Shown here: piece by piece, positions 391 through 62,472 of the stretch
Numbering within the stretch: the first letter of the stretch is position 1
Layout of the letters: the number at the start of each line of letters is the position of its first letter
Assembly (NCBI GenBank): GCA_026027325.1
Contig: JAMSLZ010000006.1
Span: 496,001-560,000, forward strand
Origin: Actinomucor elegans
Lineage: Eukaryota > Mucoromycota > Mucoromycetes > Mucorales > Mucoraceae
Length of the DNA stretch: 64,000 bases
Reading direction: 5' to 3'
Translations under genes and position numbers: made by a program
Notes under the pieces: generated by a model
Databases searched by the model: none
What the model saw: only the letters and a program-made list of their open reading frames with translations
What the model was told of the DNA's origin: nothing

Positions 391-436
391 GTGCATTATG
401 AACATGTAATAATAATCAAATGTGATATATATTAAA
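391..436 (+). repeat. Dispersed spacer repeat, copy B
   Basis: GTGCATTATGAACATGTAAT, then AATAATCAAATGTGATATAT, then ATTAAACC. It lies about 170 bp before copy A in the same orientation, and the sequence after each copy (GGTAGA...) is also similar, suggesting a local duplication. Confidence 0.6.
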
Positions 437-560
437 CCGGTATCGGTAGAGAATTCTAAAGATCATTACATCTAATCAAAGCTAAAGGCATCGTTTACAA
501 ACAGTCGATAACGGCGTAATATACTCATAGTAGTTCCACCAAAGAGTAGTTTTAGCAAAT

Positions 561-611
561 ACAGCAGCTCATCATTATGAACATGTTCTAGTCATCAAAT
601 GCGATATTAAT
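561..611 (+). repeat. Dispersed spacer repeat, copy A
   Basis: ACAGCAGCTCATCATTATG, AACATGTTCTAGTCA, then TCAAATGCGATATTAAT; one of the clearest copies. Confidence 0.7.
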
Positions 612-1511
612 AAGAATCGCTTGGTAGAATATAACGATGACGTTGAAAAATGATCTGATTTCAGAAAAGTCGCTATGTATACCTTTTGGTTCAAATTAGC
701 TTCTTTTTTTCAGTGTGCAGAAAGCACTTCTGAGATCCAATCAATTGGCAGCTTATGTTTAGTACATTCAAAAATGTCCAAAAATATTATTTTCGTATTT
801 TATTGCGTATTAAATATACGAGTTAGGATCGCACTTTTAAAACGTCGCAGAAACTACTTGATGGGCCATTGCTTCCCAATCAAGACGATGTAGCTTCATA
901 GAGGTTTATCTTTGGATCCCTTCTTGATAATATTAAAGATATTTTAAAATTATAGTTCCTAACACTGTTCTTCTTCGTACTGTTAAAGTAACCAATGTAA
1001 TTGATTATGTTTATTTTGTATAATAAACTAGAACAACTATAATAAAGCAAGTAAAGTGTATACTAAACCTCCTACATAGGTTCAATCAACTTTTGTCTGC
1101 CTTTAAACTCTAAATTGTTACACTACACTATGTCTTGTATTTTGTGTTACCCTAAGGTAGCACTTCCATTATTGACAGTATCATAGATCAAAGTATGATA
1201 GTTTGAAGGCTTACTATAGCTAGAATTCAGTTTAACGATAGTCTACTTAACTATACTGTTGATTTAATAGCATTTTTTTTCTTTACGACGATAATCGGCC
1301 CAGTCCGAGAACTACTAATGATTAACGATATTGCGAGACAAATAAATGCTTCCGCCATATTACTAAATAAAGAAGGTGCAAAGCTTCTATCAAGTTGAAA
1401 TTATTTGGTTAATGAAGGCTGTATATTAACAAATGAATGTAGGATATATATACATCGTTAGAGCTGACTTGACATCTTAATAGATGAATTAGCACATTTA
1501 GCGCGTAAACC

Positions 1512-1535
1512 ACTAAGCAGATGTGACATTTGACC
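1512..1535 (+). repeat. Dispersed spacer repeat, short remnant M
   Basis: Only the right block is kept: ACTAAGCAGATGTGACATTT followed by GACC. Confidence 0.4.
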
Positions 1536-2635
1536 AGGATCCATGACAACCTCTCATGTTGAATAGGCGCATCATGTCTATTTTTTTTTTTCAGTCTTTG
1601 ATTTTTGGTATTTTGGGCTCAGAAACCAACTAAAAAATGGAACCGTCATAATAGAAGAGGTGGTAAAAGACGTGACTGGACTTTGTAGGTTTAATAATGT
1701 TACATTTTATAAAGATAAAATGGAAGGTCTTCCTGCAGGAATCAAAAAGACTGCATATTTGAAGACCATTACGTCCTTACTCAGGCTAGATGCAATTATG
1801 AAACTACATTCATTGAAAATATTTTGTTTAGTTTAAGTAACGCTTGGAAAGGAAAACTCTCTTGACTTCTTGGCAATTTCATAATTTGGAAGATGAACCA
1901 CCATCGGCCAATATATCCACCCATTCTTCTATCAATTAGTATTCAACAAATCTCTACATTATTCTTCAAGTGATCCCCGTCTAATGGTTGTATTTATATG
2001 ACAAATATAAGCTTATAACGGCCTACAACGTCTATTAGGACAGTTAGTTGACTGAGATGCTATGATCACACTGAATTTTAGCAGCAGGTTGTAAAATGTA
2101 TACATTTTATATCATTTAGATCTATAGAATTATGGATCAGTGAAACTTCACACCAATCTCCCTCAAATGTCATATACTTAAAATGTGCTACTGCATATGT
2201 AGAACTTTTTGCTTGACTGAAATTTAATTAGTGCATTATGCTTGAGCTATGAATGACGATACAGTATGTGTATATCATGCATAAAACGATCCAGTGCTAG
2301 AATTTGAAGCTGTTTTATAGTTATATTCAATTCGTACTCCTTCGAATGATAAAACAATTGTTCAACCGTTATACAATAGATAATTAATAGTAACTTACAT
2401 GATACTACTGTAACTGGAGCTATTATTGTATTTCACTTTTTCTAATTTTTGTGATTATGTTATGGCCATACTGGATCAGATATATACAAAGATGAAACTG
2501 TATGTTTATTTGTGTTTCTACAATTATCTAAAAGTCTGTGTTTAGTATGCTATGCATATCCACCTGTCATGATATATATGCCTCATATATAAACCGACTG
2601 TTTCTATTGTGTTTGTATGTAAAGTAATATCAATT

Positions 2636-3181
2636 TCAATATATCAAAGATACATAATTAACGAGATTTTTATCCAGAAGCGCCTGGTGGGTCGGTAGAT
2701 GAGCAGGTGTACACAATCCCCAGAAATCCAAGGCTGATCCATAGAATGCCAGAGCCCCTCCACCGGTACATTTTGTCATGAAAGTAGGAGTCTTAGTCAG
2801 TCGACCATCAGCTTGTTTGAACGTGAACTGGATCTTTAGCAAAATGTTGAGGAAAATGTATATATTGTTATATGATAAAGACTTACTTGAAAGAATATAT
2901 CTTCGTCTCTTTTAAGAGATGCATTGCATTCTGCATTCTCAAAATGGCAGCACTCTTTTCCACCAATTCCAAGCGTCTTTTGAAAAGCACTATTTGAGTA
3001 AATTTAATAGTGAATTTTTATAGACTATTACAGGATGTGCCGTGTACCTGAATGCCTCAAGATGGACGCCATCAAATATCCTAAAGCTACTACCTTCGTC
3101 CATGAAATTATATATACAGAAGCCTTGAGCTTGAATGATGAAGATTGTGATCAACAATATCGCATAGAAAAAGAACTGCAT
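2636..3181 (-). CDS. Small secreted Cys-containing protein, three exons
   Basis: A predicted 144-residue secreted protein of unknown function. Exons are 3181-3048, 2989-2887 and 2833-2636; introns are 58 and 53 nt with GT-AG ends, and the frame is kept across both. Residues 1-20 form a clear signal peptide (MQFFFYAILLITIFIIQAQG). The mature part holds six cysteines, including an ECC pair and a later EC, KC and LC, and it is rich in Gly and aromatic residues near the end. No transmembrane segment follows the signal peptide. Proteins of this size and layout are common in Mucoromycota secretomes, but I cannot name a family. It is transcribed in the same direction as the nucleotidyltransferase gene upstream of it. 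Confidence 0.72.
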
Positions 3182-3592
3182 AATAGCTTCTAAAATACTT
3201 TTTTACTATTGCAAATATACTTCTATATATACTAGAGGCTTTCAAATTTTATTATGCATAAACAAAGAAATAAATTGGATATAAACCAAGGATACAACGC
3301 GTTGTAAATAAGCCAAAAGCAAAAGTCAGTTCACTCTGTTAAATCAAAGAAACAGCTTGTTATATTTTGTCAATTACACTTTATTTCTTTGTTAGCTTGA
3401 TCACAGTGTAAATGAAAACACTATGCATCTTTATGATCAAATGCCAATAATAATAGTTTACAAAATTAATCTCTAAAGTGATATTCTTTTCTTTGTTACA
3501 AAACAAGGAGTGTTTCTATAGTCTTTTTTGTTTGGTATCTTTTGCCTTGGAGCAAAAAGATAGAGTTATGTATAGTTATTTTTATGTACAAT
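3182..3592. other. Spacer between secreted-protein and nucleotidyltransferase genes
   Basis: About 410 bp without a gene. It must hold the 3' end signals of the nucleotidyltransferase gene and the promoter of the secreted-protein gene, both on the minus strand. I see no distinct site. Confidence 0.5.
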
Positions 3593-5997
3593 CTACGCGC
3601 GAAGCTTGATATTTTTCTTTTTTTGCTTGCTACTGTTAGCTAAAGTCTTGTTATTTCTCTGTCTTCTACCAGGCTTGCTATTGCTTTTGCTACTAGAGGT
3701 ACTAGTGCTTGGAATAGGGGAATTGGGTGGACTTTTTTGTTTGATCAATGATGGAGGCGTGTGTACTTTAACGATCTCTGCCAAGGTTCGTTTCTTGGGT
3801 TCAGATGCTTCATTGGTATGACTTTGTTGCTTTTTAGTGGTAGACCATCGTCTTGAACGCTGTGGTTGTTCTGAAGACTGTGAAGATTTAAGAGTTTCGG
3901 CAGCAGCTACAATATTTCCTGGTGTGGAATTACTTTTCGATATTGTAGGCCATTCCATACCACTCGATCGTCGCCTTGGCTTTCTCTCGTTAAAATGGTG
4001 AGTATGATTATGATTATTAGAATTAGAATTAGTGTTATTAATAGTATTTCCACCTTTGCGACGGTTGGAAACTGTGGCCCTTTTAGTAGATTTAGTTTCT
4101 GAAGATGGCTGCTGACGCGCTGGCTGTTGTTGAGATGATGGTTGTTGCTTTCTATGATATCTTGCAAAGATCTTATCGACAGATTGATCTGTTCCATGAT
4201 TAGCATTGATATTTAGCATCGACAATAGTGTAGAAGGCACAGGGGGCAAAGGATGACTTCCATGACGCGTATTACGAACTTTCAAGATTGAGTCTAATGC
4301 TTGTGGTGAACTAAAGCGTGGATGAAAAGTATTGGATGTTGGAAAATGTGACTTATTGATAGGTGGAGCACGGTACGTAAATGAAGGAAAGTGTGTGTTG
4401 TTATTATAAGAATCTGACAGGATAGGCGAAGGATAAGCGCATATGCCATCTACCATACTTCTTCGTCGATCGTAAGGATGTGCTGCCGAGGTAATATATT
4501 CAGGGCTAGGGTGTATTGGCAAAAAGAAAGAAGAAGTTCGATTTTCAGCAGGAAGTGTAAGTGAGAGTATACTACTGTTAGCGTTGGAGGGTATTTCAGT
4601 AGTAGTACTGATGGACATGGGTTGATAAAGTGCACAGATGGATTCTAGATCGTCACCCGCCAATAGCAAGTCCAGAAATCGTTGAAACTCGCATCGTAGA
4701 CCAAGCACAGAAGCAATATCTGCAGAATTGCCTAGATTTCGCCCCACATTGAAAGGTTCTTCTACGCATAAACTCATTCTATTTCGTCCTGTATCCCATC
4801 CTTTCTCTTTCTTCGACAAATAACGACCTTGACGCACTGAAACCACTTGATGATCATAATCAAACTCTACTGCAAATCGACGGAAAAAAGCAAACAAAAG
4901 ACCGCCTAAACTTTCCTGATTAGCTGAGCCGAATCCTTTCAGTTTATCCAGATCATCGTAAAAGTAATCGTCGTCTTTATCCTCGCTTTCAATTAAATGC
5001 AATACAGGCAGAACGGGCGGTTGACGTTGCTGTAAGAAATTAATAATCATACAAGTCCATGTGTAGGACGACAAAGTACCACCGTTGGCTAATAGTAGAT
5101 AAGTCTCATGTAATGCACGAAATTAATTGGTATTACCTGCATCGTTTAATGATCTTTGCTTTGTCCAATGCTTTATAGTCATAATAAGCGGCCTCACGCG
5201 AGGATCCAATGCAACATAGGTCTTGATCATCTTTGTATTTTGCAGAGCTAGTGTATTATTCACATTGATATCACATGAAAGTTGACTAAACAGGATAGTT
5301 AGCGTATGCAATTGATTTACGATAGATCAGGCGTACAGTTCTGGATCAAATAATCGGACAATGGGTACTTTTGCTCGAGGAACACATACTACATGCTGCA
5401 TACCACCTATAATGACAATACTATTGAATTGATTTACTCTATATGGTTATTGATATGATCTTACATTTGCGAAAAAGTTTTGCAAGCACTCTAACGTTAC
5501 GAAGACCGTTCCAAGGTGTAGTAATACACAAATCAACATCAGAGGAGCTAGTACCGAGATCATTAACCGAAGATCTATTGCGTGTAAGTGTATCGTTTTT
5601 GAGAGCTTTTTTTTTTTTCGAGCATCACTCTTACCCAAAGACATTGGCTTTGATATCATGGTCTGGCCATTCGTTGTTTAATAGTCTTTCCATTAACTGT
5701 ACAAATTTGACTCGTCTGTCATGACTTTCTTTGCTGGGCAAAAGTTCCTGTTGATACAAAGGTGAGTTTATAATCAAACGCTTGTCAAAACGGATAACAT
5801 ACTTCGTACAATTTAATCATGCTTATAGAAAGGTTATCTTCTTGTTGCGTATCAAGAGTATATGGAATAAAGGAATCAGTTTTAGACTCATCGGGTGCTG
5901 GGGCAGGTAATCGAGCGAGCGAACTTTCAACTTGTTCTGTTCGAGAGCCAGTGTTGAGCTCGACCGTATTATCAAGACTATCTGTGGATGCCTGCAT
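3593..5997 (-). CDS. Cid1/TUT-type terminal RNA nucleotidyltransferase
   Basis: Adds non-templated nucleotides (U or A) to RNA 3' ends; which base cannot be told from sequence. Six exons (5997-5803, 5747-5635, 5574-5465, 5406-5337, 5285-5137, 5088-3593) encode 710 residues. The polymerase-beta-like core has the helical turn FGSSVNDLG followed by SSSDVDLCI, giving the first two catalytic aspartates, and the third lies in LSCDINVNN. The PAP-associated domain follows: VRPLIMTIKHWTKQRSLNDA, then ANGGTLSSYTWTCMIINFLQ, with a later EEPFNVGRN segment. The last 330 or so residues are low-complexity, rich in Ser, Asn, Gln and Pro, and end in clusters of Lys/Arg that may direct nuclear entry or RNA binding. 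The start at MQAST is the first Met in frame; an upstream exon cannot be excluded. Confidence 0.88.
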
Positions 5998-11670: not shown

Positions 11671-11798
11671 TTACGTTTGGCCTTAAAGCGAGATCGGGAT
11701 CTGTTGATCATTAAATCCAGCTTGCATTGTTTGCTGATTGTAGCTAATGAGCGTGACATACGGATTATATTTCAGTTAACAATGGTCCAAGTAGATTC

Positions 11799-11880: not shown

Positions 11881-11958
11881 ATAAAATGCAAGTTCATTAG
11901 AGACAGCCTTCAAGATAGAATATGAACCTAGTTCTTCAATCAAACGATATTCCTAATA

Positions 11959-23862: not shown

Positions 23863-24821
23863 GAAACAAATAAATCTGCATGGATTTGAAAGTTACGACT
23901 GTCAAAACATTCGCTTTTTTGGTGTATTTTTGATCCTGGACTCCAATGTGTACTTCTTGGAGAACAGTCTTTTCGTTGCATATTAAACTGTTATTGGAGT
24001 AAAACTTGCTTTGATGTTTGTAAGCTGCTTTTCACAGCGAGACAGAAAGAAAGAGAGGAATTATACTTTTTAAAATGCTTTTTGAGATTTTTATTATCCA
24101 CAGCAGCGATGTTAAACAATGGTTATAATAGGCTTAGCAGCTCATTGTCGATGCAGGCTATTATTTTGATGAAGGCATTAGACCGAGAAATGTACACATA
24201 ATAGTGCATTCATATGCTGATTTATACTGCGTAAATACTTTCTTTGTCTATTATGCAACTATATATGCTTCCATAGGAGTTGAAGCGGTCAAAGGATTGA
24301 TCAATCGGCTATTATCAAAGATAATAAATGCTATATGGTTGAAAAATAGATGCAAAAGTGTATTTTTTTTTTAATTGTCGATTGGCTATCGGAGGTGGCG
24401 AGAACGACTCTTCAGAATCAGGAACAAAAGTTTAGTATGAACCTTGATCTTATTTTTAATAACAAATAATTGCAGATGGGCGCCACATGTATTATGAAAA
24501 CTTGTGTCAAACTGAATGATGCATTTAATACTGCAGAAATCATTGATAGCTCCTTCCACTGACTGTGCTATCATTGATAACAGGTAATTTTCTGTATTCT
24601 ATAGAAAAGTAGTCATAATTGGAAAAATACATAAAAATCCATCTGCATTACTTGATGTATGTTCCATCTATATACTTCATTAACTACATCTTTAAAGTAT
24701 TCTATTAGTGCTCTAAAAAATTATTTAGGCGTGGATAATTTGGACCCAAGGATAATACTCTGAAATTGGCCCTTTTTTTAGTGTCTCTAAATTTATTGAG
24801 TGATTCTCATTCAGCTATATC

Positions 24822-24862
24822 TCATGGCCAGTGCATGTTTTGAATGAAGCATTACATCTACA
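24822..24862 (-). repeat. Dispersed spacer repeat, partial copy N
   Basis: On the minus strand it reads TAGATGTAATGCTTCATTC, then AAAACATGCACTGGCCATG, matching the left half of the family. The right half is lost. Confidence 0.5.
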
Positions 24863-26127
24863 TAATGGAAGTGCTACGAGTAGTACATTTAAGCCAAGTA
24901 CTATAAATATGTAGTTTCTGAAAACGGGATCGAAATAATCGATTAATCTTCTTGGGTGATCTTGATTTAATGGGGCATCCAAAGGTTAGTAATATTCATA
25001 ACAGACTGTTACAATTATTAGACCTATCATTTGACTGGATTACAGCGAGGATGTTATAGAATAATGGTGGACTATACTATATGCATTTTGTAAGCTAGAA
25101 CTAATGATCCACAGATTTCTCCACGGATCCTGGCCTATTCCCAGTGATTATGTAATACTCAATGTTTACAACAAGCAGCCACATCCATATTCATTTGTGC
25201 TATTTCCACTTGTAAAGTAAGATTCCACTTTGATTTCCCTATACAGCTCACATCATCCGCTAAAATACTGGAATATACATGGCTTTTGCTAGATAATAGA
25301 ATAATCAAATATATCGTCTTTTACTTTGCAACTTTTTTATTCCAAATCAATAATAAATCACTTCAGGGTTGACTATCACAATGATCTAAACTAAATAACC
25401 ATCATAAGCTCACCTAATAAAAGTACACTCAAAAACGTACAATTGCGTGTATATATAACAATGAACAATTGAGGTATGAACTTAATTCTCGGCAAGTGCA
25501 TAAAACGAATTGCACTCGTTCAGACATGTATAAATTTGCGACACTACCTGTTTGTAATAAAATCTTAAAAGAACATGATCATATAACAACATCTTAGTTG
25601 TCTACGTTGAGATTTTTGTATTTACTTTGTTAAAAAGCTTTCAGTGCTCGGAGAAAATTGAATTATATATAGATTATATTAAAACGAAGAAAATATAGCT
25701 TCCTCTACCGTGGGACAATTTGTATTTTTAGATGCGTGAATTCTATTTCTGAGCCTCGAAATCCATAATCATTTTTATTCGTTGATGGTAATTAACAAGT
25801 TTAGTTTCTCATCAATACATAGAAGAGAAAATAGTCTTTGAAGTCAATATACCCTTGAAATTGCAGCGCATCGTGGAAAAATTCTGAAGGATTCTAACAA
25901 TATAGAAGCGGTTGGCTTTCAAAATGATATTGTCTTCTTGTTTTGTTACAAAACTAGCGTCATTGAATGGAAAATTTAATTCTTTACAGGCCATATAGCT
26001 TTGATGATGTATGCTTGTATTTACCATTCTGTATAAGGCTGTTTGTATTTTTGTTTTAATTGTTGAAACCTGTAAATTTCTTCCTAGAAAATTGACATAA
26101 TACACTTTTTAGCACGAGAGATATCGT

Positions 26128-30300: not shown

Positions 30301-30927
30301 TTATGTTACAGTCCAGTCAGCTAATGAAATTATGTATGTTTTAGCTCAAGACTCGCCGATGAGACTTCATTCTTCTAAGAAGAACACTAGCTACTGTAAA
30401 AGAGCATATCATTGAGCAACTAATCCCGTATGCTTATTATTATATTTGATACTTTCGTATTACAAGCAGCGAAATCGTGCAATTCAGTATATTTGAAAGA
30501 GAAAAGTGATTTTGAGTAGTTTAGATAGTAGTTCTATACTCATGAAACAAAGGATGGCTGTCAGCTGTGAGCTATAGATTGATATAACATTCCATTTACT
30601 GACATCATAACAGGGTTTTTTACTGTATACTTTGTACTGATTGTATTCTTCTGAAATAGAAGAAATGATGATTGGTTCCATGTATAACATATAGTCTGAT
30701 TTGTGGCCATTGCAATATGTTTGATGCCTTACAATTGGAAAACGTTCGAACGCATACACTTGCTCATTTTTAATGCGAGTATCTTGTCAGGCGCGACACT
30801 TGACAAAGATTGAGTGAGATATCTATAGATTATTAGTTTGAAGCTATATCCATATCTCATTTAAAGACTCGTTATGTATTAGAATAGTATATCAATAGTA
30901 TTTCAATTGATCAAAATTTGCAGTAAA

Positions 30928-31010
30928 GATAGTAGCTCATTTTGAGTATGCACTGCATAATCATCAAATGCGACATTTGATTGAGAACAGTCAAGAGATT
31001 TATAAACCAT
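30928..31010 (+). repeat. Dispersed spacer repeat, copy F
   Basis: Reads GTAGCTCATTTTGAGTATG, CACTGCATAATCA, then TCAAATGCGACATTTGATTG and an extension with AGATTTATAAACCATTAG. The right block is a perfect 7-bp inverted repeat around CGA. Confidence 0.75.
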
Positions 31011-31931
31011 TAGAATCAGGCCATACTCAATGCATGCTCTCCACAACCATTCATTAAAATGTAATTACCTACTAAGTTGTCAGAATAATGGCTTTATTCA
31101 ATATAGTATATACTTCTCTTTCAACATGTGCAAGTCATTAAATAGAATATTATTAAATCTGAGTCGATCAAATGTTGAAAACAACCCCATTTCAGAAAAA
31201 TGCCAAGGTATATCTTTAGGCCTAGCGCTTCAAAGATTCTTTTATGTAATGTGAAAATGATGCTTTCGTAACGCGGTTATGCGTATAATAGGTAGAGCAT
31301 AGAAAAGAAATGATCAATCCGAGTATTTCATTCGATATTTCTATAAATGTGCCATTCAAACATAATAACGTCCCCAAATTGTGGGCTGCGACAGTTTCAT
31401 TTTAGAGTCGGATCATTTCCAATATCTCTATGTACATTTCTCAACCATTCTCTGCTTAATGGTGCAACAAATTAGTGATCTATACTCAAAGTAAGCAGCT
31501 ACTAAAATATCATTTAACTAAAAGTACAAAGAGTATATCATGTAAACTAACGATTGACGGTAATATTCAAACATTTTATACAGCCTAGGTCTGATTCGTA
31601 TTTGACAAGCAATTGATAGTCAAAGAGAGCTGTTGTATCTATTAGAGCTTTCCTTTAATCCAAATACAATGAATCCGTTTTATTTCTTAACTATATATAT
31701 GTATGTATATATATATATATATATCTTTTGTACATAAATTAGATAGAATAATGCTCTGCTGAATGTTCAACTGGTCTCCACAGAGTCAACAACCACACCT
31801 ATTTGAACTTTTTCTAAAGATAAACTTGCTTCCCATTTTCCAACCGAAACTACAAATAAATTTATTCTTGCTGTATCCGCGTTAAAATCGTTGTATACTG
31901 CGTTATGTGTAATATGATGGTTTTTATTTGT

Positions 31932-35263: not shown

Positions 35264-36723
35264 TATGTTTGAATGTCTAAATAAAACGAACGAGTTGATT
35301 AGCATAAAAGAAAAAGTGAAACCAGGTCTGTGCTTACTTGAATTTTGCTGTATTTGATGTAAATTGATTTACGTTGATTGGGGAAAAAACCTTTCGATAA
35401 TAAAGAAGAAAGCAAGTCCTGATAATGGGAAATCAGAATATAGAGCTCACGTGGGACACTATGCCATTAAAGTTTGACCATAAAGTAAAGTAGCCTGTAT
35501 AGGAATCGCCTTGTTGTCCAACAAAAATATGTATACTTGATACACAAGGTCTTTAGAATGCTGTGTTTTTCACGTATAATTATCAGATATGGCTGCCCCT
35601 TCTTCAAGTCTCAAGAGAGAATATCCAAGCAGTAGAAGGTCATACGACACGACAAGCAGATTTATAGTAAGTAGTAGATTAATCCTTGCTATAGCTATGA
35701 TATGTCGATTTCAAGACTCTGTGTTTTTATTTGATTGAATTGGATAATTGGAGATATATGTTATACGCCAATGTACCAGTAGTCGCTTGGTCACATTCAA
35801 TTGAGTGGCATATTTGGCTTGTATGAATAATGCGAGATGTTTATATTATATATTTAATTCTGTTTCGGAGTCCCAGCTCAAGCAAAATGCCTTTTTTCGA
35901 GTTTTTTTCTTTCAATGCTTTATATACGTATTATTGAGATTCTATCGAATACGGTTGCTCACTCCAAATAAGTGGTAATAATCAAATATAACATCAAATG
36001 GGGGTCGGTATAGAGATCTATTAGTTGTCAAATCTAAAATATAATATGAAATGTATATACTTTATAGTCAAATGTTGAAATATAATAAGCTCGTAGTACT
36101 TTGAACAAATGGTAAGACCATTCAGTGCAATGATTTATTTTGAACGCATTATAGGCATTAAATGTGAGATTGTACCAGCATCACTCGGAGAATGTTGAAA
36201 TGCTCTATGTTTAAAATCCAGCTGAACGCTTGATATCTTATTTTCCATTGTATTCGTCCGATTCATGTCAGAAAATGAATAGAAACTAAAAACCCCTTGT
36301 GACATCAAGGATAAAAATGTTTAAGGGTTCTGCTACAATTAGGTTATCTGATTTTTCGATATTAATAGCCTGTGAATTCAGAACCTAATTCAGAATTCTA
36401 TCCTGACCTGCAGATGGGTAATTGGTCTTCTCGCAATGTTCAGTATTAAGAACCTACCAGAGACATCGGGTTTTGCAACCTGCTCGAGATAACTGGGTCC
36501 CAGATGTAAGAGCGTATTATGGTATTTATTTCATTGATTAATATAAAGGTCAATAGTCGCTCTTATTTTTGGCAATAGATACACAGATCGAAATTATGAG
36601 CAAGTCATTTGCTATACGCTAACTCGTTGTTTATTCGCTGGAGATATCTACCGTCTGTAAAGTTGCTATTTGACTGATTATCTGATCATAATTGTAGTTA
36701 TTTTCTCTCTTCGTTTGAATACT
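35264..36723. other. Spacer upstream of CK2-beta gene
   Basis: About 1.5 kb, AT-rich. The first 200 bp is the probable CK2-beta promoter. One diverged copy of the dispersed repeat lies at 36131-36176. No gene is seen. Confidence 0.5.
36131..36176 (+). repeat. Dispersed spacer repeat, diverged copy H
   Basis: TTTATTTTGAACGCATTATAG is followed by GCATTAAATGTGAGATTG; the order of blocks matches the family but the right block is degraded. Confidence 0.5.
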
Positions 36724-36933: not shown

Positions 36934-39742
36934 GTATACACTGACTTTTTTCCCATTTATTGTTTATCTCTCTTCTTTTCATTAAGTGCAATTATCTTGC
37001 CATTTGTTCGCACTTGGTTAATTGTTTATACCTTTTTTATATCATTTATTGTATGGATTACTTATTATTTATTATGCCAAAGTTTATTCCAAAGATGAAC
37101 GAATAATTTCTAAAAAGATCTTTAAATTATTTATAAATATTGAAAGTATTTATATGTCTTTTATAATAATTTTCTACATACTTGGCCGTCCTAAGTTTTT
37201 AATGTCGCGTTGAATGATGAGTAGTGCATCATATCCACAATAAACTATTGCTTCTACTACTAGAGCCGTAATTTAACTCAGGTACTGCATTTATACGGTA
37301 GCCTTATCTGCAACCTAAACGAAATACGTTGCACACGTACAATGGTGCATTTTCATTTTAGTTAGTATTGTCATATTCATCGACAGAAATATGGTATACT
37401 TACTACAACTACATGTATAATGAAGTTACACTCTTTATTAGAAATAATAAACCTTATATGCTGTTCAAAAATATTTTGCGTCAAGAATAAGCTGAATTAA
37501 TGAAGTTTCTTTTCTATTTCTAATATTTATTTTTGGCGATCAAAGATTGCAGAGGCTGATGGAAATGAATATACTGGTTAAGCTTTTTTTTTTTTTTTTA
37601 CTTTACTTTTTCAAGCTGTGCTCAAACTAAATATCGCTAGTTAGACAATTCACTGTATTTGAGGCGCCTACTGATCAATGATGCTGCTACTTCCCAATAT
37701 TGCTATCGACATTCGTCTTTTTTATAGTGCCTAGTATATATGGTTGTACTTAATGTTTAATACGTACATTATAAACTATTTAACTATATCAACTGATATT
37801 TGCGAATGCTAACGCAAATTTCGAACCTAAGAGAAACAATGAGAACTATTGTCATTATCACTGAGTGCTTGTTCATTCATTATGAAATACTAATGATACC
37901 TAATTGTATCAAATGTAAAACAAGTCCCCTGTTTGAAGTAGAGCATATACCCATCATCTGCATCACCAAGGGATTATGCGTCAAATTAGTTTAGCCTATT
38001 CTTCTTCAACAAATACAGTAGCGTATATAATACACTCTCTTCAATAGAGACATAGGGCCAGTATCTAGAGATTTAACTAGCTTAAAAAACCATTTATCTA
38101 TTCTTTTCATAACATTTATAATACTTTCGTTAACCATGTACCACATGAATATGACGATTATAGATAACGAATACATTAGTTGTTACATATACTTGATTTC
38201 AAATCTTAGTATTTACTGTTTTATTGGTGTCCCCTAGCTTTGTAGTTAAGAGCTTTTTTTTTGCAACCGAACAAAGCCTCTTCACAAGAGTTTTATACAA
38301 ATTCGTGTAGTTATCAATTACTATATTTTTGACTTGAATTGAGGTTCTCAATAACATCATTAAATATAAAGTTGCTCGCAGGACATAATATCGATCTATT
38401 ATTTGAATATAAAGTGGTTGTTACGATTCGATTGTATTCAAGACGAATAGAACAATAAACCATTGTAGCCCGTAACAGGAGTAGCTATTTCAGGGAAAAA
38501 TCAGAAGGGGCTTTTAGACTCAAAATCCCAAACATTGTGTTTTTTGGGCAGCATAAAGACAGCGTTTGAGGCAAAATACATTAATGCATATTTATTTTTA
38601 TATTTTTCTGATATAAAACTCCCATGTTATCAAGGATGATTTGATGAATTAAAGGAACCCTTAGTAAAATTTACCCCGTCCGATATATTTTTTTTAAAAA
38701 AAAATCGCAATAACAGCCTTTGCTCATCAATATCCTTTTATTATCGAAAGTTCTGATTAAAAAAAAGTAAAAAGCTGAAAAAAAAATCTGGCATCCGAGC
38801 GCCGATTGCTTTTTTTTTTTCAAAAAAAAATTCTATCGTCCACTAGAGATCGAGAGGGTCCCAAAAATGAACATCTTTTTGCTGCTTTTTTATAATCTTT
38901 TTGATGGCATTAAAGGCACTTTAGTGACAACATTTACAATAAATAATTGCTGTATGTTTATCTAAATATACTATAGTATTTTTCTACGAATTTTTTGGTA
39001 TATTGGAAGTTGGGCTATTTTCTAGAAATCAAAGCCGAGTATATATCAACAGTTTTTAAGACACTGCTACAGGTACCATTTGATACGCCAATGAATTCCG
39101 TATAATAGCCTCCAATCAACTTTTTTACGTATTGATGCTTCTTTGTTATTTAAAAGTCGGATAAAAAAATAGGGACTTGATGGGAGTCATTTCAAATGAA
39201 AGCACAATTTTTTTTTTACAGAATTTCTTTGCGATTGAATGGTGACTAAACTGTCGTTGAAATTTGAAATATGATAGGCATTGCCAAAGCTAATAGAGCT
39301 GTAGCCAATATCCTATTAAATTCAGTAACAACTCATGGTAGAAAGTTGCATTAGCCATAACAAATCTGTAGGTTTTCCTTTAGTATTCATCGTATCCCTT
39401 GTTTTCGAAGCAGGCATCGATATGCATAACTAATTACAATGTCACAAAAACGATTAGTAGCACTTTTTCCTTGCATGCGCGTAGTTAAATGCATCTAGAG
39501 CCACATACTGAGACATTTTAGATATATATATGTATAAAGGGTTGCGCCTTCCAGGACAGTAATCTGTTATACCGGTATAATAGCTCTTGAAGGACTTCCA
39601 ACTTGTGCATGTATATTAAACTGACCATGGTCGCCGTTTTAAACGAAAAAGAAAGAAAACTGCTATTAATTTATTGTTGTATATTTAAACAACTCTTTTT
39701 CTCGTTCCTTTTTCTTTTCCTTTTCTTCTTCTTTATACCACT
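36934..39742. other. Long AT-rich spacer before LIM gene
   Basis: About 2.8 kb with no supported gene; the frames at 37022-37213 and 37800-37994 are low-complexity. Runs of A or T of 8-15 nt are frequent, notably at 37587-37600 and 38680-38830. The last 200 bp, with a TATATATATGTATAAAGG near 39525, is the likely promoter of the LIM gene. Confidence 0.5.
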
Positions 39743-44932: not shown

Positions 44933-45339
44933 ATTGAACTAAGATACTGTAGAGTAAGGGAAAAAGAAACAAAGGTTGTTTTTGTATGCATGGAATATAT
45001 TCAAAAAAAATCGAGATAATTTTTTAGCAGTCATTTTTATTGCATACTAGCAATAACTTGTCATCATGAGTGATCTATGAGCGGACCTGAAAACATTCAT
45101 CTGTCAAATATAAGCACTGTTTGCTTGGCTTGGTTTTGAGCTATGTTCTGTGTTGTATTTTTGAATGATTTATTAAATGACACAGTTCATTTTGAATGAG
45201 GATTATTATTTAACATGAATTATGACCAAGATCTATTTCGATTTATTGCCAATGAATGTAAAATGCAATGAATATATTTTTCTGAATCTCAACAATTGAG
45301 AATATAACATTCTTTATATTGAGATTTTTTGGATCCAAC

Positions 45340-45393
45340 GACTTGTTCTAGACATGAACTATTAATCTGTCGCGGCATTTGACTGGGATTATC
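45340..45393 (+). repeat. Dispersed spacer repeat, copy I
   Basis: CTTGTTCTAGACATGAACTA, then TTAATCTGTCGCGGCATTTG and ACTGG; block order is kept, with changes in the left arm of the palindrome. Confidence 0.6.
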
Positions 45394-46009
45394 ACCTTGT
45401 TGATACATCTCCCAGTAGTGAGAATGTCTGACTTTAGAATTGAATTAACAACTTTATCCAACTACAGTATGCCTTGCTCGCCTGTACTGTATATTTAACT
45501 CTCACTCGATTTTTATTGGCTGATGATTTACAACGATTTTTGAGGTGATCGCAAAAACGATACAAAATTTGATAATAAAAGACTATTAATGCACAAAACA
45601 TAATTTAACGAAAGAGACTGTATACAGAATTGAAAGACGCGTTTATGAATATAAATATTGGTTTATTTTTCCTTTAGGTAGTGGAGAAATATTAATGGAA
45701 GTTGGTTTTTTGAGATTTTTGGAAATACAATTGTTGTATGTTCATAGAATATATATTTGCATACTCTGCGGCTTATTTAATTTGAGTTATAAATAGGTTA
45801 TACCTCTAGGAAGGAAAACCTGAAGAAGGTGAAACTCTTTAGCTTTAATTATACATCCTCAAGCTGTCACATTGAAGGAACAGGACAGATATTCCGAAAA
45901 CAGTGTATTCATACTCGAAAAAATACATCTGTTTTGAAAATCTGGGTCTATGATAATATAATTTGAAAATATGCCATTTTTAACATTTTACATTCTTCCT
46001 CAAGCGATT

Positions 46010-46062
46010 GGGAGCTAATATCGCATCCAATGACTTCTTATACATGTTTAGAATGGAGTATT
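46010..46062 (-). repeat. Dispersed spacer repeat, copy J
   Basis: On the minus strand: ATACTCCATTCTAAACATG, TATAAGAAGTCA, then TTGGATGCGATATTAGC. Confidence 0.65.
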
Positions 46063-46171
46063 TTATCCATTAAAACTATTGTTTAACTGAAGAAGATTAT
46101 ACTATACAATTAAGGCTAGAAATGAATTGTGTACATTCTACATGATCTAAATCTAATCAACAGATCCTTTA

Positions 46172-46212
46172 TCGATCTCAATTAAATGTCACATCAAATG
46201 ACTAATACAAGC
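46172..46212 (-). repeat. Dispersed spacer repeat, copy K (right part)
   Basis: On the minus strand: TTGTATTAGTCATTTGATG, then TGACATTTAATTGAGATCG. Confidence 0.5.
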
Positions 46213-46285
46213 AGATAATAGACTACTGAATGTATTGAAATTATAAGTTTAACTAAGTTATAATTTGTGTATTCATTTTTTTTAC

Positions 46286-46289
<4 letters not shown>

Positions 46290-46319
<30 letters not shown>
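46290..46319. repeat. T30 homopolymer
   Basis: Thirty consecutive T in a spacer. Possibly the tail of an old retroposed sequence, but no target duplication is evident by eye. Confidence 0.9.
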
Positions 46320-46320
<1 letters not shown>

Positions 46321-47301
46321 GAATGAACAACTTCGTTTATCAAACTTTTTATTTAGCCAAGTACAATTAGAGCCTTGTGGTATTCATTGATTATTAGTAG
46401 TAACTTACATAATGCAATTGATACAACAAGATCATGATATATAAATTTATATATCTCTTGGCTAATCTAAATTTAATTTAACATTTAATCAATCAAAATT
46501 TCTTGTTCATAATCTACTACTGTACTTATTAAAATCTTATAAAAGAAAGTGTCACTTTATTTTGTAGTTGAATTCTCTGACGAAATTTATCTGTCATGCC
46601 AAAGCCTTTTATCGTAATTGCATTACATTAGTGATTCATTTTAAAGATGTATAAATTGGGCATTCTTTAAAATAAGACTTGTATTAAGAAGCCTTATCAT
46701 TTCTTTTTTCCTGCAAAAAAAAGATGTTCACTGTTAGTTCATCAGCCAATTAGTATAAACTATTAATTTTTTATATATTTTTAAATAAAACTTGATTTTC
46801 ATTTCCTTGATTTATTTTAACATATTATATTGTCCACATATTTGTTCAAATATCATTTGACGGTCCTTCCTTGATAGTAAATTACAAAGTATATCACTGA
46901 CCTTTTATTGTCTTCTATATTCCAATTTTATATTATTATTGTTAAGGATTGTTTCTTATCTCAACGTGGTTTTCATTTATAATTGCATTATAGCCATTTA
47001 CTTATCAAATTATTAAATATTTTAGTATTTCAATTTATCGACATGTAAAAAAGAATGGAATTGAAACATGTACTTTCTATTATCGTGAGCAGAGATGTAT
47101 ATTTTAGTGTATATATAAAAGTATAATTAAGAGATAAAAGATAATCTTTATTCATTTAGCATTCTATTTGATATTTATACTAATTAAAAGGTTACGCACA
47201 AATCTGTGCGTATCTGACACTATAAATACTATTTTTTTAGGATGATTCATGAAAACTAAGCACAAACATATCACGAAAATCATAACAAAAATAAAAAGAG
47301 A

Positions 47302-51589: not shown

Positions 51590-52425
51590 GCGCAATATAC
51601 GTACACACGTATATATACATACTCACACATACAAAGTTCATATATATTATCTCAATGCTTATATGAACATCCTCTTATATATCATATCTATGCCCTTTAC
51701 TTGATTATGCCCTTATTCATCCGCTCCTCCTTTTTTTTTCTATATGCTTTCTATTATCAAACAGTTCCAATAAAACAATATATATGCAATGCAAATGTTA
51801 TGCTCAATATACAAACTCCGTCACAATAAGCCACCGAGTAAAGATTATAAAAGCGCAAAACAAATTTTTCCTTCTTTTTCCTCTTTGTGCATAACGGTAA
51901 GTTTCTTTCAAGACTAAATTATCGGTATATTAAACAACTTTATATTATTAGAAAGGAGAGAACTTTGGCAATCCCCTTGAGAAGGACGGAACGAGCTTTT
52001 GCTCAAACTTACAGCACCTTGTGTGTTTGAAGGCATCGCTCTTTGGAGCATCTAGGCATATTGCCAACCCATTTTTTTTATTATATAAATGAAAACGAAA
52101 AAAAAAGAGCTTTAAATAAAGTAACTCGAGATACTCTATATAATTAGGGCTTAAGTTAAGAAAGAGTGAAACTATAGATAAAATTGTAGTGTATGTAGCT
52201 ATAACTTGACAACAGAGGTTTGCTAGTGAATAAACGACTACCTTTACAAACAATACCTTTGGCTAGTTGTTCTGCAGGCCGAGAATAGACGAATTCTCTC
52301 GAGAAACAAGCTTTTTTGCGTAGCATGGGGGCAGTCACCAACTTGCTGGTAACTTTTTCTGCTTTTATCAGCAATTTTTTCCCTTCTTTCTTTATACCAA
52401 CCCTAGTCAAACTACACAACCAATC
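51590..52425. other. Spacer between WWE-like gene 2 and CMC1
   Basis: About 0.8 kb. Overlapping minus-strand frames at 51948-52653 look like chance openings in AT-rich DNA. The 52260-52425 part is the likely CMC1 promoter and leader. Confidence 0.45.
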
Positions 52426-52850: not shown

Positions 52851-52856
52851 ATACTA

Positions 52857-56836: not shown

Positions 56837-56854
56837 AAAGAAGGTATTTTATTT

Positions 56855-57711
56855 CTATGTAGAAGCAGCAAATTTGGCTTGAGCCTTATTCACTTTATCT
56901 TTGAAAGTAGCAATGACTTCGTCAGGCTTTTCAGCCTTAAAGATACCAGTACCAGCTACGATGACATTGGCACCTGCATCGGCAGAGGCATCAATAGTAT
57001 CCATGGATAAACCGCCATCTACTTCGATATCCAACTCAGGGTATTTGCGACGCAAAGTCTCTACCTTGGGCATACATTCAGCCATGAAGCGCTGTCCACC
57101 GAATCCAGGTTCAACTGTCATAATCAAGATCATATCACATTGTTCAGCAATTTCACCGAGAACAGCTTCAACAGGCGTACCAGGCTTGACAGCAACACCT
57201 GCTTGCATACCAGCTGCATGAATTTGTTGGATCAATTCTAAAGGCTTCTCGGTAGCTTCAATATGGAAAGTGTACATTTGACCACCAGCTTTAGCGATGT
57301 CATCAACCCATTGAGAAGGGTTAGATACCATCATATGGCAATCTAGTCAATAATTGTATTAATTAAACGTGTTATTATATCTCAAGTGAGCTATACCAAA
57401 GTAAGCCTCGGTATGAGGTCGGATAGCCGAGATAATAGGTGCGCCCCAAGTAAGATTAGGTACAAAATGACTGTATACTGTTTATTAGACCTGTGCTCTT
57501 AAGCTGTCTTTTTTTTTTCTTTTTTTCTTACCCGTCCATGACGTCTAATAAGTAAAGATTTAAATGATTAATAAAGTGGTACTCGAGAAATGAACAAAGG
57601 CTTACCGAGATGAAGCCAGTCGGCACCATTCTTGGTCATACGCTTAGCTTCAGCAGCCAAAAAGGCAAAGTCGCTGGAAAGCATGGAGGGAGAAATCTTG
57701 GCAATGGGCAT
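56855..57711 (-). CDS. RPE1: Ribulose-phosphate 3-epimerase
   Basis: Interconverts ribulose 5-phosphate and xylulose 5-phosphate in the pentose phosphate pathway. Four exons (57711-57606, 57544-57532, 57470-57397, 57342-56855) encode 226 residues, standard for this TIM-barrel enzyme. Motifs in order: MPIAKISPSMLSSDFAFLA, LHLDVMDGHFVPNLTWG (metal-binding His and catalytic Asp), DCHMMVSNP, MTVEPGFGGQRFM, and EVDGGLSMDTI (second catalytic Asp), then AGTGIF for phosphate binding. Exon 2 is a 13-nt micro-exon that encodes the DVMDG stretch and so is essential for activity. Introns are 54-61 nt. Confidence 0.96.
57532..57544 (-). other. Thirteen-nucleotide micro-exon of the epimerase gene
   Basis: Lies between a TTATTAG acceptor and a GTAAGAAA donor. 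It supplies VMDG of the active-site motif LDVMDG; skipping it would break the frame. Confidence 0.85.
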
Positions 57712-59190: not shown

Positions 59191-61876
59191 ATGAATGGCA
59201 TTCACTTAAATGACTCCATGGTTCATCAGCCAAGAGAAAAAAGACTTAAAGTGTCAAAAGCTTGTTTTACGTGTCGAGTGAAAAAAATTAAGGTAAAGGA
59301 ATAAAAAAAAAAAAGATGTTTTCATTATGAATATTCATCTTGTATGCCAATGTAGTGTGATGGTTTACAACCCTGTATGCAGGTAAGGTATTATTTAGAA
59401 TCAATAGTCATTTACTAACTCTTTTCTTTTCTTTTTTTTTGTAGTGCAAAGGTAGATGACGAATTGACCTGTAAAACTAATGATTAATCTTATTATCTAA
59501 AGCCCGTAGAAGACCCTGCTCTTTTTCTAAAGATGGTACTGTAGACCAAACTCAGCAATCTCCTGATAATGATGAGCTAGAAAGACCCTTTAAACGTCGT
59601 TTTTCATCCGAATCATCCGATTCACCTGTCAACCCTCATCTTATAGAAGCTAGGTCAAAGGAACAAGAGGAGCTACGAGTAACTTCTCAACAACTGGATA
59701 GACTAAGTATGATGTGGCCCGGAGAAGGAAAAGAAGGTCGCTGGTTGGTAGACCTCAATCTCTTGTTTAATGGTGCAGAAGATAATAATACACATCAAAG
59801 GCAGCAATTGCACCATCAGCCGCCAATTCACATCAACGCTCACCTCCTTGACCTTTATTTTCGACACCGTTACACTGTTTTTCCTATCCTACCCAAGTCT
59901 ATCTTTTACCGCTTGCTGGATAATCGTGATGCGTTTATTAACCCTTTACTGCTTTATAGTATGTATTCTCATTCTGCTCATTTCTCGCATGAGGATGCCT
60001 CCGAAGCTGATGTATATTATAAAAAAGCACAAGCTCTATTGGATACGTACATTGATACGCCTTCGCTTAGCACGGTGGTTTCCCTTTGCTTGCTATCATT
60101 ATTTGAATCCAATCGCTATGGATTAGGGCCTCACTCTGCAAGCCGGGCCCGTATTTACAGCGATATGGCATGTCGTATGTGTCACGATCTGAAATTACAC
60201 AAAAGGTACAGCTTTCATAACACTGGTGCGACACCTGATGATATCGAGTTACGAAAGCGTGTTTACTGGGTATGCTATTGCCTAGACAAGGTACACAGCT
60301 TAGTCAATTCTCGTCCTTTTTGTTATCTTCCAAACAAGCCGACCTGGATTTCCCTATGGTTCTAAGAACGGATGATCCTAGTGAATTTGAAATCAATACT
60401 TGCTTTGTTGAGCATATCAAGTTGATGCAAATCAGTGAACGTGTCTTGCGGTTGGAACTGCCAGGATCACCCGAAACGGTAATGGATTTGGATGGGCAAT
60501 TAATGTTCTGGTTGCGAAGTTTGCCTGAACAGCTTCATTGGACACCGCTTAATATGGATGCTCACGTAGTGCCAACCCAACCGCCTGCAAATGCGCTCGT
60601 AGCCCATTTGCATTTGGTATTTAACTTTGTCGAAATCTCGGTATTGCAGCCACTTGCTTCTACAATCCTGTCTTCCTCGCCTACATCCGTTATGATTCAA
60701 CAGCGCTGTTCTACGGTTGCTACCAATCTAACACAGCTCACTTGCGCTATGGTTGACCAGCCTAACTGTATCATGTCATTTACATTGGTAGCTGAGGCTA
60801 TCATGGCTGCTGTACGCGTTCATATTATGGATTGTGCTGATGAAAAACTCAACAAAGCGCGACATGCTCGTTTCATGTTTCAACGTAGTATACGTTCCTT
60901 AAGATCCGTCTTGCACCATCGCATCATTGATCGTATTCAAGAATATACATACACCATTGAAAAAACTTTAGAAGACGCCGACACTGGTAATGGCAGCAGT
61001 CGCAATAGTAGTCCAAAGCTTCATGTCTTATCGCCCATCATACCAAGAACTACCCCCAATTCATCAACATCCAATACTGCAATGGAATGCCAGTCTACTA
61101 TGGAAGACCGTTGGCCTTCAAGATACAATAATTTGTTTTCTTATGGTCTAGTCTCACCTGCCTCCAGTACTGCTTCTGCACCTGCAGAAAAGAGTACTAT
61201 TTCTCGTGAAGATGAGCTCGTCCGACCTCAATCAAATTTGGCTCAAAGCAGCGTATATCCTCCATCATCAGAGTCTACAACTGTCACTTCTACATCTAAT
61301 CTCAATAGCAGTGTCCACCATAATCATACAACCACTACCGCTGTACCTTTAATTGATCCTTACTCCCGTTCTGCTTCCTTTACTATACCTGTTAATTCAT
61401 CACCTTCTTTATCCAGTCAACAACTATCTCCTATTCGAAACTATGATCGTGCTCCACAGCATGATCAAATGGAAATGTATTCCAGCATTTGGTCTCGTTC
61501 TATAGGCGGTACTGACTTTTCATCCTCTTCAGAAAACTTGAACTCATTCATCAGCTCAACACCACAGGAACATGGCGCCACAACCTCAACCGCAACTGAG
61601 ACAGAAGCAATCAAAGCAACAGAAACTGTTTCCAAGACAATGAATGCAGATGCCGAGATATACTCACTCTGGGATCAATCCACGCCACAGACAAAGAAAC
61701 AAGAAGAACCACCTGCCTTTTTCACGCCTAGATATGGTTTGGGTGTCTATGCCTCTGCTCAGCAGCATCATACAGATGTTATTCGACAACATATGCCTGG
61801 TATCAAATCCAATCATCGTCCTGTGTTATTGAATCATCATGGTCAAGTTGTCGTGAACAATAATATACAGTCTTAA
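59191..61876 (+). CDS. Zn2Cys6 transcription factor with fungal_trans domain, frame broken by one base
   Basis: A fungal zinc-cluster regulator. Exons 59191-59292, 59356-59382, 59445-59451 and 59503-61876; about 836 residues if the break is discounted. The zinc cluster at residues 25-51 has Cys spacing 2-6-5-2-6: CFTCRVKKIKC, DGLQPCMQCKARRRPC. It is assembled from four exons, one of only 7 nt. The middle homology (fungal_trans) region includes LLDLYFRHRYTVFPILP, RARIYSDMACRMCHDLKLHK and RKRVYWVCYCLDKVHSLVNS. Immediately after VNSRPF the frame shifts at a T5 run (60317-60321); a sixth T would continue as FLLSSKQADLDFPMVL. The last 300 residues are Ser/Thr-rich. The start at 59191 is chosen because the preceding frame is not protein-like. 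Confidence 0.82.
60317..60321 (+). other. Putative one-base deletion in the Zn2Cys6 gene
   Basis: The upstream frame ends at a stop at 60363-60365 after SRPFCYLPNKP; the downstream frame (open from 60272) carries SSKQADLDFPMVL. One extra T in the T5 run joins them, and total exon length becomes exactly 837 codons. No GT-AG intron of normal length bridges the two frames. Confidence 0.65.
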
Positions 61877-62091
61877 AAAAAAACCTACTTGCATTACAAT
61901 AACTTGTACATATAATACATATTATGCCAACCTTCATTTTAGTTTAATTCATTTTTTTTTTATCTTATGCTACTACATTATATGAACCCTTTCTATGCAA
62001 GACGTGCGAATAAACATTTAGCTTTTAATAAACTTTATTTTGAACGACGATAAACTCAATTCTCAACTTGATGACTCCACTTTTGCCAAAT

Positions 62092-62092
<1 letters not shown>

Positions 62093-62122
<30 letters not shown>
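62093..62122. repeat. A30 homopolymer
   Basis: Thirty consecutive A downstream of the Zn2Cys6 gene. It could be a retroposition tail, but no flanking duplication is obvious by eye. Confidence 0.9.
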
Positions 62123-62124
<2 letters not shown>

Positions 62125-62417
62125 GTAAAATGAAGCCTAAAAGGAAACTCAAGCCCTTAGATAGGGTGAAGACAACAAAAAAGAATAGAGCTCCAGGAAT
62201 CAAATCCCTAATATCTCAGCGTATATGTATATATATAAATTAGAATTAAATATCATTGTATACAATTAAAATTTTTTTCCTGATAGCATAACTTCATTCT
62301 ATCATTTTGCTGTGACATTGGGCCAAGATTAACAGATTCTAGATATGAAATGTATGTGATCTTTCACCACAAATCAATACAATAGTTACAGTATTTTAGT
62401 CAAATAATAGTTATAAT

Positions 62418-62472
62418 GGACGCAGTTTATATTGGACATACAATAGCAATCAGATGCGACATTAAATCGAAG
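62418..62472 (+). repeat. Dispersed spacer repeat, copy L
   Basis: GGACGCAGTTTATATTGGAC, then ATACAATAGCAATC, then AGATGCGACATTAAATCG. Confidence 0.6.

What the first reader, a model, noticed from the sequence alone, without database searches (positions are those of the whole stretch)
391..62472. Unnamed dispersed repeat confined to intergenic spacers, with a palindromic end
At least a dozen related segments (391, 561, 1512, 11799, 11959, 24822-, 26128-, 30273, 30928, 36131, 45340, 46010-, 46172-, 62418; minus means reverse strand) share ordered blocks: left GCAGCTCATTCTGAACATG, middle ACTAGTCA, right TCAAATGCGACATTTGA. The right block is an inverted repeat (TCAAATG-CGA-CATTTGA). Two copies (11799, 30928) also share a 3' extension with AGATTTAT. 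None lies inside a predicted gene, both orientations occur, and copies are diverged to different degrees. This fits an old miniature element, a solo terminal repeat, or a structured non-coding element spread by transposition. I know of no named family.
Basis: seen in the sequence. Interest (0 to 1): 0.75.

Follow-up and report, generated by a model that had tools for sequence, protein, structure and literature searches.

The report
Fossil repeat family in Mucor-like fungus
The spaces between genes in this Mucor-like fungus hold, by estimate, thousands of badly eroded copies of one old non-coding element, about 0.9 kb long, built of roughly 172-base units in a fixed order followed by a separate tail; it is most likely the fossil of an extinct mobile element.

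Summary
The ~60-base motif is the core of a ~172-base unit in head-to-tail arrays of 1-4. A 224 kb sample holds 70 units, controls below threshold, about 10,000 per genome by extrapolation; no unit base lies in predicted coding sequence. Units within arrays have position-specific sequences, and 24 of 35 3'-complete arrays are directly followed by a second module M of ~0.4 kb (the M profile was trained partly on these flanks, independent support). So what spread was a composite of about 0.9 kb, three units plus M, now ~66% identical to its consensus. Palindrome and fold ideas fail. The transposon class is unresolved: units resemble the ~170-base central repeats of Helentron derivatives, but that family's ends were not tested. 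A young 2.5 kb inverted-repeat element has re-amplified two decayed units as a passenger. Best reading: extinct non-autonomous mobile element, decaying nearly neutrally.

The parts
192..649 (+). array of three units (224-312, 346-474, 521-640); ordered types 1-2-3
   Evidence: three-unit model 247.8 bits
646..1036 (+). module M directly after the array
   Evidence: 116 bits, controls at most 9.1
   Evidence: leave-out 34.1 bits
   Evidence: leave-out 59.5 and 49.3 bits
19774..20173 (+). module M without units
   Evidence: 76.9 bits
24087..24208 (+). single unit, facing the next array
24371..24779 (-). module M of the following minus-strand array
   Evidence: 152.7 bits
24759..25208 (-). array of three units (24775-24909, 24937-25050, 25096-25187; the last only 17.2 bits)
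   Evidence: leave-out 22.0 bits for 24822
   Evidence: leave-out 48.1 bits
   Evidence: leave-out 5.1 bits, E 0.65; absent from the refined list
30723..31201 (+). array of two clear units and one very eroded third
   Evidence: three-unit model 221.8 bits; leave-out 60.2 bits for 30928
31176..31613 (+). module M; its 3' half overlaps the next minus-strand array, so one of the two alignments is overextended
   Evidence: 62.0 bits
31380..31690 (-). array of two units, facing the array at 30723
35914..36251 (+). array of two units
   Evidence: leave-out 21.0 bits for 36131
37127..37306 (-). single unit
38487..39166 (+). two M modules side by side (38487-38763, 38847-39166), a local tandem duplication
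   Evidence: 70.0 and 58.4 bits; duplication
45295..45462 (+). single unit, marginal alone
   Evidence: 31.3 bits; leave-out 12.5 bits
45510..45981 (-). module M of the following minus-strand array
   Evidence: 90.4 bits
   Evidence: leave-out 35.2 and 34.8 bits
53989..54258 (-). module M without units
   Evidence: 56.8 bits
62285..62540 (+). one clear unit plus a very weak one upstream
   Evidence: leave-out 42.9 bits
62548..62798 (+). module M
   Evidence: 47.3 bits

Best explanation
These are fossils of an extinct, non-coding mobile element of about 0.9 kb. Its 5' part is up to three (rarely four) related but distinct ~172-base units in fixed order; its 3' part is a ~0.4 kb module M. Shown here: the composite architecture, dispersal in both orientations (matches on 22 of 27 contigs in the listings), absence from predicted coding sequence, and strong divergence with a transition-rich, GC-to-AT mutation pattern. 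Inferred: copies were spread by enzymes of an autonomous partner; selection removed insertions in genes; amplification stopped long ago; the copies since decay roughly neutrally and are now and then carried along by younger transposons.
For: Three ordered unit types score 303-335 log units better than four order-shuffled sets (six restarts for the data, four for each shuffle). Label swaps never reach the first/last signal (0 of 200, 39 arrays). Genome-wide word order 11 to 1, backward controls 2 and 4. M directly follows 24 of 35 3'-complete arrays (its profile was trained on 30 such flanks, so this is partly circular). Exact words for last unit plus M start occur 13 times against 5 backwards, and in the capped top lists one place outside the training set, C12:653 kb, has units and M adjacent in the right order. 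Adjacent units of one array are hardly more alike (54%) than units of different arrays (52%), so arrays spread as wholes. Column information falls to control level beyond unit 1 and beyond M. 0 of 6,661 unit bases coding against 2,186 expected. The 43 matches scored and listed are 66-79% identical to the consensus; transition/transversion 1.53, G>A 31%, C>T 29%.
Against: No terminal inverted repeat, target-site duplication, autonomous partner or empty site was shown; the ends are fuzzy. Some A/T columns are 95% conserved, against at most 0.88 in four decay simulations of similar divergence (sd between A/T columns 0.146 against 0.103-0.118), which plain uniform decay does not predict; but G/C columns are not over-dispersed (0.094 against 0.078-0.103), and of two harsher runs one reached sd 0.136 and maximum 0.93 on 14 units while the other could not be scored. 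An excess of arrays facing each other (13 to 2 within 1.3 kb; two of the 13 are one local duplication in L006 and one is a local palindrome in L037) hints at structure not captured. 13 of 42 M copies lack units directly before them and 11 of 35 3'-complete arrays lack a detected M.
Confidence: 0.7

Rival explanations
1. Non-autonomous rolling-circle (Helitron2/Helentron) element of the HINE/DINE kind with central ~170-base repeats. This is a sub-case of the best explanation: it names the class.
For: In oyster, short satellite-like arrays (56% with 2-3 monomers, 51% of monomers 160-180 bases) are dispersed genome-wide, and the 13 commonest clusters sit in HINE elements (PMC7492417, abstract and passages). 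Head-to-tail neighbours of the form units-M-units-M occur here in L002, L016, L026 and L032, and M-units-M in L040. Helitron2-type elements exist in a fungus, Fusarium oxysporum (PMC5148889, passages).
Against: Helitron_like_N gives one hit below cut-off with two stops in the whole genome (none of the 14 control genomes rings either, so this absence is weak). SubTIRs and a 3' stem-loop were not searched for because the ends are unresolved. In Cg_HINE the repeats sit between a left and a right flank; here no conserved left flank was seen in 21 aligned copies.
Confidence: 0.25
2. Foldback or long-inverted-repeat DNA element: unit arrays were the two facing arms around M. Also a sub-case of the best explanation.
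For: Facing arrays within 1.3 kb 13 against 2 diverging; at window 24087-25208, 30723-31690 and 45295-46557 the order is units, M, reversed unit(s). Neighbouring genes do not explain it.
Against: Only a minority of M ends have a reversed unit close by; several facing pairs rest on weak hits; L037 is a 959-base local palindrome and the two L006 pairs are one duplication.
Confidence: 0.15
3. A functional spacer element (for example a nucleosome-positioning or chromatin-boundary sequence with ~172-base repeat length) kept by selection at many sites.
For: Unit spacing peaks at 165-180 bases; over-dispersed A/T-column conservation, up to 95%; A and T inside ApT steps more conserved (0.77, 0.76) than elsewhere (0.67, 0.66); present in 13 of 16 sampled 10 kb stretches.
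Against: No orientation bias to neighbouring genes in 36 arrays (upstream 14 same, 13 opposite, 9 none in reach; downstream 16, 15, 5). Linkers between units are conserved too, and fixed unit order plus M is the mark of a copied composite. G/C positions have decayed to 55-57%. The ApT effect may be mutational context.
Confidence: 0.12
4. Scattered remains of a satellite, spread by recombination rather than transposition.
For: Nucleosome-length tandem unit; conserved linkers.
Against: Arrays do not exceed 4 units in the sample of 70 arrays; unit order is fixed; module M is linked. Centromeres were not examined.
Confidence: 0.07
5. Structured RNA or tRNA-derived SINE.
For: The consensus holds GTAGCTCA, like a tRNA A box (by eye).
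Against: No Rfam tRNA match at the window's units up to E 10; box scores at shuffle level and ARAGORN finds nothing on four consensus units; no consensus fold and ordinary fold energies.
Confidence: 0.03

Closest known systems
Cg_HINE elements (non-autonomous Helentrons with central ~170-base repeats), PMC7492417
   Same: Short dispersed arrays of ~165-175-base monomers linked to a conserved flanking module; non-coding; thousands of arrays
   Different: No left flank seen; subTIRs and 3' palindrome not tested; units here differ by position in the array; host genome has only a sub-threshold Helitron_like_N relic
DINE-1/INE-1 of Drosophila (PMC4067079, passages)
   Same: Old, very abundant, non-coding, with central repeats
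   Different: Its defining 13-base subTIRs, short inverted repeat and 3' stem-loop were not shown here
Foldback elements of Drosophila (recalled, no call)
   Same: Tandem repeats in facing orientation around a middle part, in some clusters
   Different: Facing arms not regular; most copies one-sided
Young 2.5 kb element L043:357-2881 (CACTA/EnSpm-like by its CACTG start; class name recalled)
   Same: Carries two decayed units inside (77.6 bits); similarity to the start of M is by eye only (1.8 bits)
   Different: A later carrier: its other parts have no match in the 36 sequences searched, so it is not read as the source of the family

Membership tests
HINE / non-autonomous Helentron | short central tandem repeats, ~160-180 bases | tested here: met
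   (not unique to this family)
HINE / non-autonomous Helentron | 5' and 3' subTIRs and 3' palindrome | not tested
   ends unresolved; only a general check for conserved sequence upstream of unit 1 was made, negative in 21 copies
HINE / non-autonomous Helentron | insertion between T residues, no target-site duplication | not testable with these tools
   copies about one third diverged; no empty sites
HINE / non-autonomous Helentron | autonomous Rep/helicase partner in the genome | tested here: inconclusive
   one hit of 25 bits, cut-off 28.9, with two stops; partner may be extinct
MITE / TIR element | terminal inverted repeats with target-site duplication | not tested
   3' end not resolved, so the two ends were not compared; 5' borders only looked at
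Foldback element | long inverted arms made of tandem repeats | tested here: inconclusive
   13 facing against 2 diverging pairs, but most copies one-sided
Satellite DNA | long homogeneous head-to-tail arrays | tested here: not met
   70 sampled arrays, at most 4 units; fixed order of unlike units; centromeres not examined
tRNA-derived SINE | Pol III A and B boxes / tRNA similarity | tested here: not met
Structured RNA family | conserved pairs with compensatory changes | tested here: not met
Solo LTR | TG...CA ends, two copies flanking an internal coding part | not tested
   ends not resolved; no paired copies searched for

The most novel reading that the evidence does not exclude
A fossil transposon layer turned into chromatin furniture: the ~172-base units still act in many spacers as nucleosome-length phasing or boundary sites, with their ApT-containing core positions under selection in a fungal lineage known for adenine methylation at ApT (methylation context recalled; only paper listings seen).
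Probability: 0.08. Interest if true: 0.8.

Novelty: new member of a known kind. Interest (0 to 1): 0.45.

Why it matters
Matches to this one eroded element cover 5.7% of the sampled 160 kb outside the window and 10.7% of the window, yet searches with single copies barely see it: a two-unit query from the window finds 17 places at E<=1, itself included, while a composite consensus gives 1,645 first-look candidates, 40 of them scored. If the same holds in other Mucorales, part of their seemingly unique spacer DNA is old transposon. The family offers a record of mutation pattern and age, and the young carrier shows how relics can be re-amplified.

Tried and rejected
Structured RNA and tRNA-derived SINE: rejected. 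Palindrome as a conserved feature: rejected. Placement at gene ends in sense orientation as the cause of facing arrays: rejected. Young copies by consensus search: none above 79% identity among the 40 candidates scored per query; most candidates were not scored. Young 2.5 kb element as the living source: rejected, because its left part and right parts, and also the stretch just after its units, have no match at E<=0.01 in the 36 searched sequences, and its units are decayed like the rest (77.6 bits). Subtelomeric near-identical copies (L038, L039, L040) are one larger duplication, not young insertions. Helentron partner: one weak hit only. Target-site duplications of the old copies: not attempted because of divergence. 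Related Mucorales could not be searched: the session had no fungal genome collection and no metagenome scans. A genome-wide profile count could not be run, so copy number is extrapolated. Literature: seven searches, of which I saw listings (titles and starts of abstracts); none of those describes this repeat, which does not show that none exists. Three papers were opened: PMC7492417 (abstract, outline, passages), PMC4067079 and PMC5148889 (passages).

Limits and dropped rows: of 20 stretches asked for as a sample, at round coordinates chosen by me, 16 existed. The non-redundant set of 36 sequences leaves out L001 and L020 (the window itself), L024 and L028 (overlap L041 and L010) and L038 and L039 (duplicates of L040); it still holds both arms of the L037 palindrome and both copies of the L006 duplication. 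The coding map is a home-made hidden Markov model; 12 of 20 of its window exons that I tested match a Pfam family at E<=0.001. The refined unit, three-unit and M profiles were trained on copies in the same sample; independent checks are. The all-against-all comparison of upstream flanks failed and printed the downstream result again, so 'nothing conserved upstream' rests on the column profile alone.
Full report
What was checked. The window is 496001-560000 of contig C24 in an unnamed 36.5 Mb, 27-contig genome. A kinase encoded in it is closest, among named proteins, to Mucor plumbeus (66%) and Mucor circinelloides (64%); an unnamed metagenome protein is 87% identical. The host is thus a Mucor-like member of the Mucorales. 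A profile from them finds all of them plus nine more places at E<0.001 in the window, and nothing at E<=1 in 20 simulated windows. With neighbouring copies left out, 12 of 14 stay clear, 45340 is marginal and 30273 fails. The same window-built profile finds 30 matches at E<=0.01 in 13 of 16 stretches from elsewhere.

Unit and arrays. The conserved core belongs to a unit of about 172 bases. Same-strand neighbours are spaced mostly 150-190 bases with a mode of 172-174. Genome-wide, two exact GCGACATT words 150-180 bases apart occur 33 times (7 of them copies of one young element), and 60-90 bases apart not at all. In a non-redundant set of 36 sequences (window, 16 placed 10 kb stretches, other fetched loci) there are 132 units in 70 arrays: 31 single, 19 double, 17 triple, 3 quadruple.

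Abundance and place. The refined profile gives 70 units at 13 bits or more in 224 kb; the highest control scores are 9.1 (five simulated sets) and 11.3 (reversed sequence). The 16 outside stretches (160 kb) hold 44 of them, in 13 of 16 stretches, which extrapolates to roughly 10,000 units in the genome. The 22-base core with up to three mismatches occurs 317 times against 0 backwards. A simple coding model marks 33% of the sample as coding; 0 of 6,661 unit bases fall there against 2,186 expected. Units and M together cover 7.1% of the sample (window 10.7%, rest 5.7%), again with no coding overlap. No bias of orientation relative to neighbouring genes was seen in 36 arrays.

It is a composite. 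First and last units of arrays differ consistently; swapping labels within 39 arrays reached the observed signal in 0 of 200 trials. A model with three ordered unit types scores -16119.7 against -16422.7 to -16455.2 for four data sets with shuffled order (six restarts against four). Independently, ACTAATCA followed 150-180 bases later by TAGTCATC occurs 11 times genome-wide (backward control 2) and the reverse order once (control 4). Adjacent units of the same array are hardly more alike than units of different arrays (54% and 52%), so arrays were not made by recent local duplication. Beyond the last unit a further ~380-400 columns are conserved above control in 31 copies. A profile of this module M finds 42 copies at 18 bits or more, controls at most 9.1. 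Of 35 3'-complete arrays with room, 24 are directly followed by M; of 42 M copies, 29 are directly preceded by units. Because M was first trained on flanks of unit arrays, the first figure is partly circular. Free of that: exact words for last-unit core and M start, correctly spaced, occur 13 times against 5 backwards, and one untrained place, C12:653 kb, shows units and M adjacent in order in the capped lists. Upstream of unit 1 (21 copies) and downstream of M (31 copies) the column information is at control level. The ancestral piece was therefore about 0.9 kb.

Age and decay. The matches scored and listed are 66-79% identical to the three-unit consensus and 67-77% to M. In 99 units the mean core identity to consensus is 66%, transitions exceed transversions 1.53 to 1, G and C positions show about 1.5 times as many changes as A and T positions, and CpG is not special. 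Simulated uniform decay reproduces the mean but not the spread between A/T columns (sd 0.146 observed, 0.103-0.118 in four runs at factors 0.8 and 1.0). Against this, G/C columns are not over-dispersed, and of two runs at factor 1.2 one gave sd 0.136 on 14 units and the other could not be scored. Some constraint, in the source lineage or in the copies, or context-dependent mutation, is left open. In the same simulation only 71-75 of 360 units reach 30 bits at factor 1.0, so many real copies may be too eroded to be detected.

Puzzling arrangement. Oppositely oriented neighbours within 1.3 kb face each other 13 times and diverge twice. Some of these hits are weak, two of the 13 are one local duplication (L006) and one is a local palindrome (L037). 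Some clusters read units-M-reversed units (window 24 kb, 30.7 kb, 45.3 kb), others units-M-units-M head to tail (L002, L016, L026, L032; L040 as M-units-M). This could be element structure or clustering by later events.

A young carrier. Seven of the 33 spaced pairs show the same first 80 letters. They belong to a 2.5 kb element without open frames of 100 codons or more inside it, with a 21-base inverted repeat beginning CACTG; nine places match the first fetched copy at 95-98% over 0.84-1.54 kb and three older ones at 84-85%; flanks are GAA/GAA in one copy and TTT/TTC in another. It holds two decayed units (77.6 bits); the stretch after them looks like the start of M by eye, but scores only 1.8 bits. 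Its other parts match nothing in the 36 sequences searched. It is read as a later transposon that picked up a relic. The copy in L042 is interrupted by a 285-base element with 25 near-full matches at 99-100% in a capped list.

What it works like and whether it belongs. The closest known arrangement that I saw is the HINE group of Helentron derivatives, whose oyster members carry short arrays of ~165-base monomers with conserved flanks (PMC7492417, abstract and passages). The defining ends of that group were not tested here and the only Helitron_like_N match in the genome is below cut-off, so membership is not claimed. Satellite, SINE and structured-RNA readings fail their tests.

Verdict. Real, widespread and not described in the listings of the seven literature searches made here; but of a familiar kind, most likely an extinct non-autonomous mobile element. 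The unusual points are its share of the spacers, the fixed order of unlike units, and how invisible it is to copy-against-copy searches.

Noticed in passing
L012 (G000:C11:500001-510000), about 1-8 kb: A block of 19-22% G+C with an ISXO2-like transposase (DDE_Tnp_IS1595), two related proteins with DDE_Tnp_4 and Chromo domains, and pieces of a Tc1-type transposase (DDE_3, HTH_Tnp_Tc3_2) on either side; looks like nested transposons or a foreign AT-rich insert.
   Followed up: partly
L042:2296-2580: A 285-base element with 25 near-full matches at 99-100% in a capped list, inserted in one copy of the young 2.5 kb element; probably a recently active small transposon.
   Followed up: no
L043:357-2881 and L044: Young 2.5 kb non-coding element with 21-base inverted repeats starting CACTG and short tandem repeats of about 56 bases near one end.
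   Followed up: partly
L038, L039 (C24 near its end), L040 (C6:23000-26000): Segments of at least 2.4 kb, 97-99% identical, at two places near the end of C24 (opposite orientation) and near the start of C6.
   Followed up: no
window 51942-52079 +: U6atac minor spliceosomal RNA (67.5 bits), suggesting that this fungus has a minor spliceosome.
   Followed up: no
L037:1625-2575: Local 959-base palindrome, 92.6% identical, with unit and poly(A) near both outer edges.
   Followed up: no
unit core, 131-unit alignment: A and T inside ApT steps of the consensus are more conserved (0.77, 0.76) than other A and T (0.67, 0.66); cause unknown.
   Followed up: no
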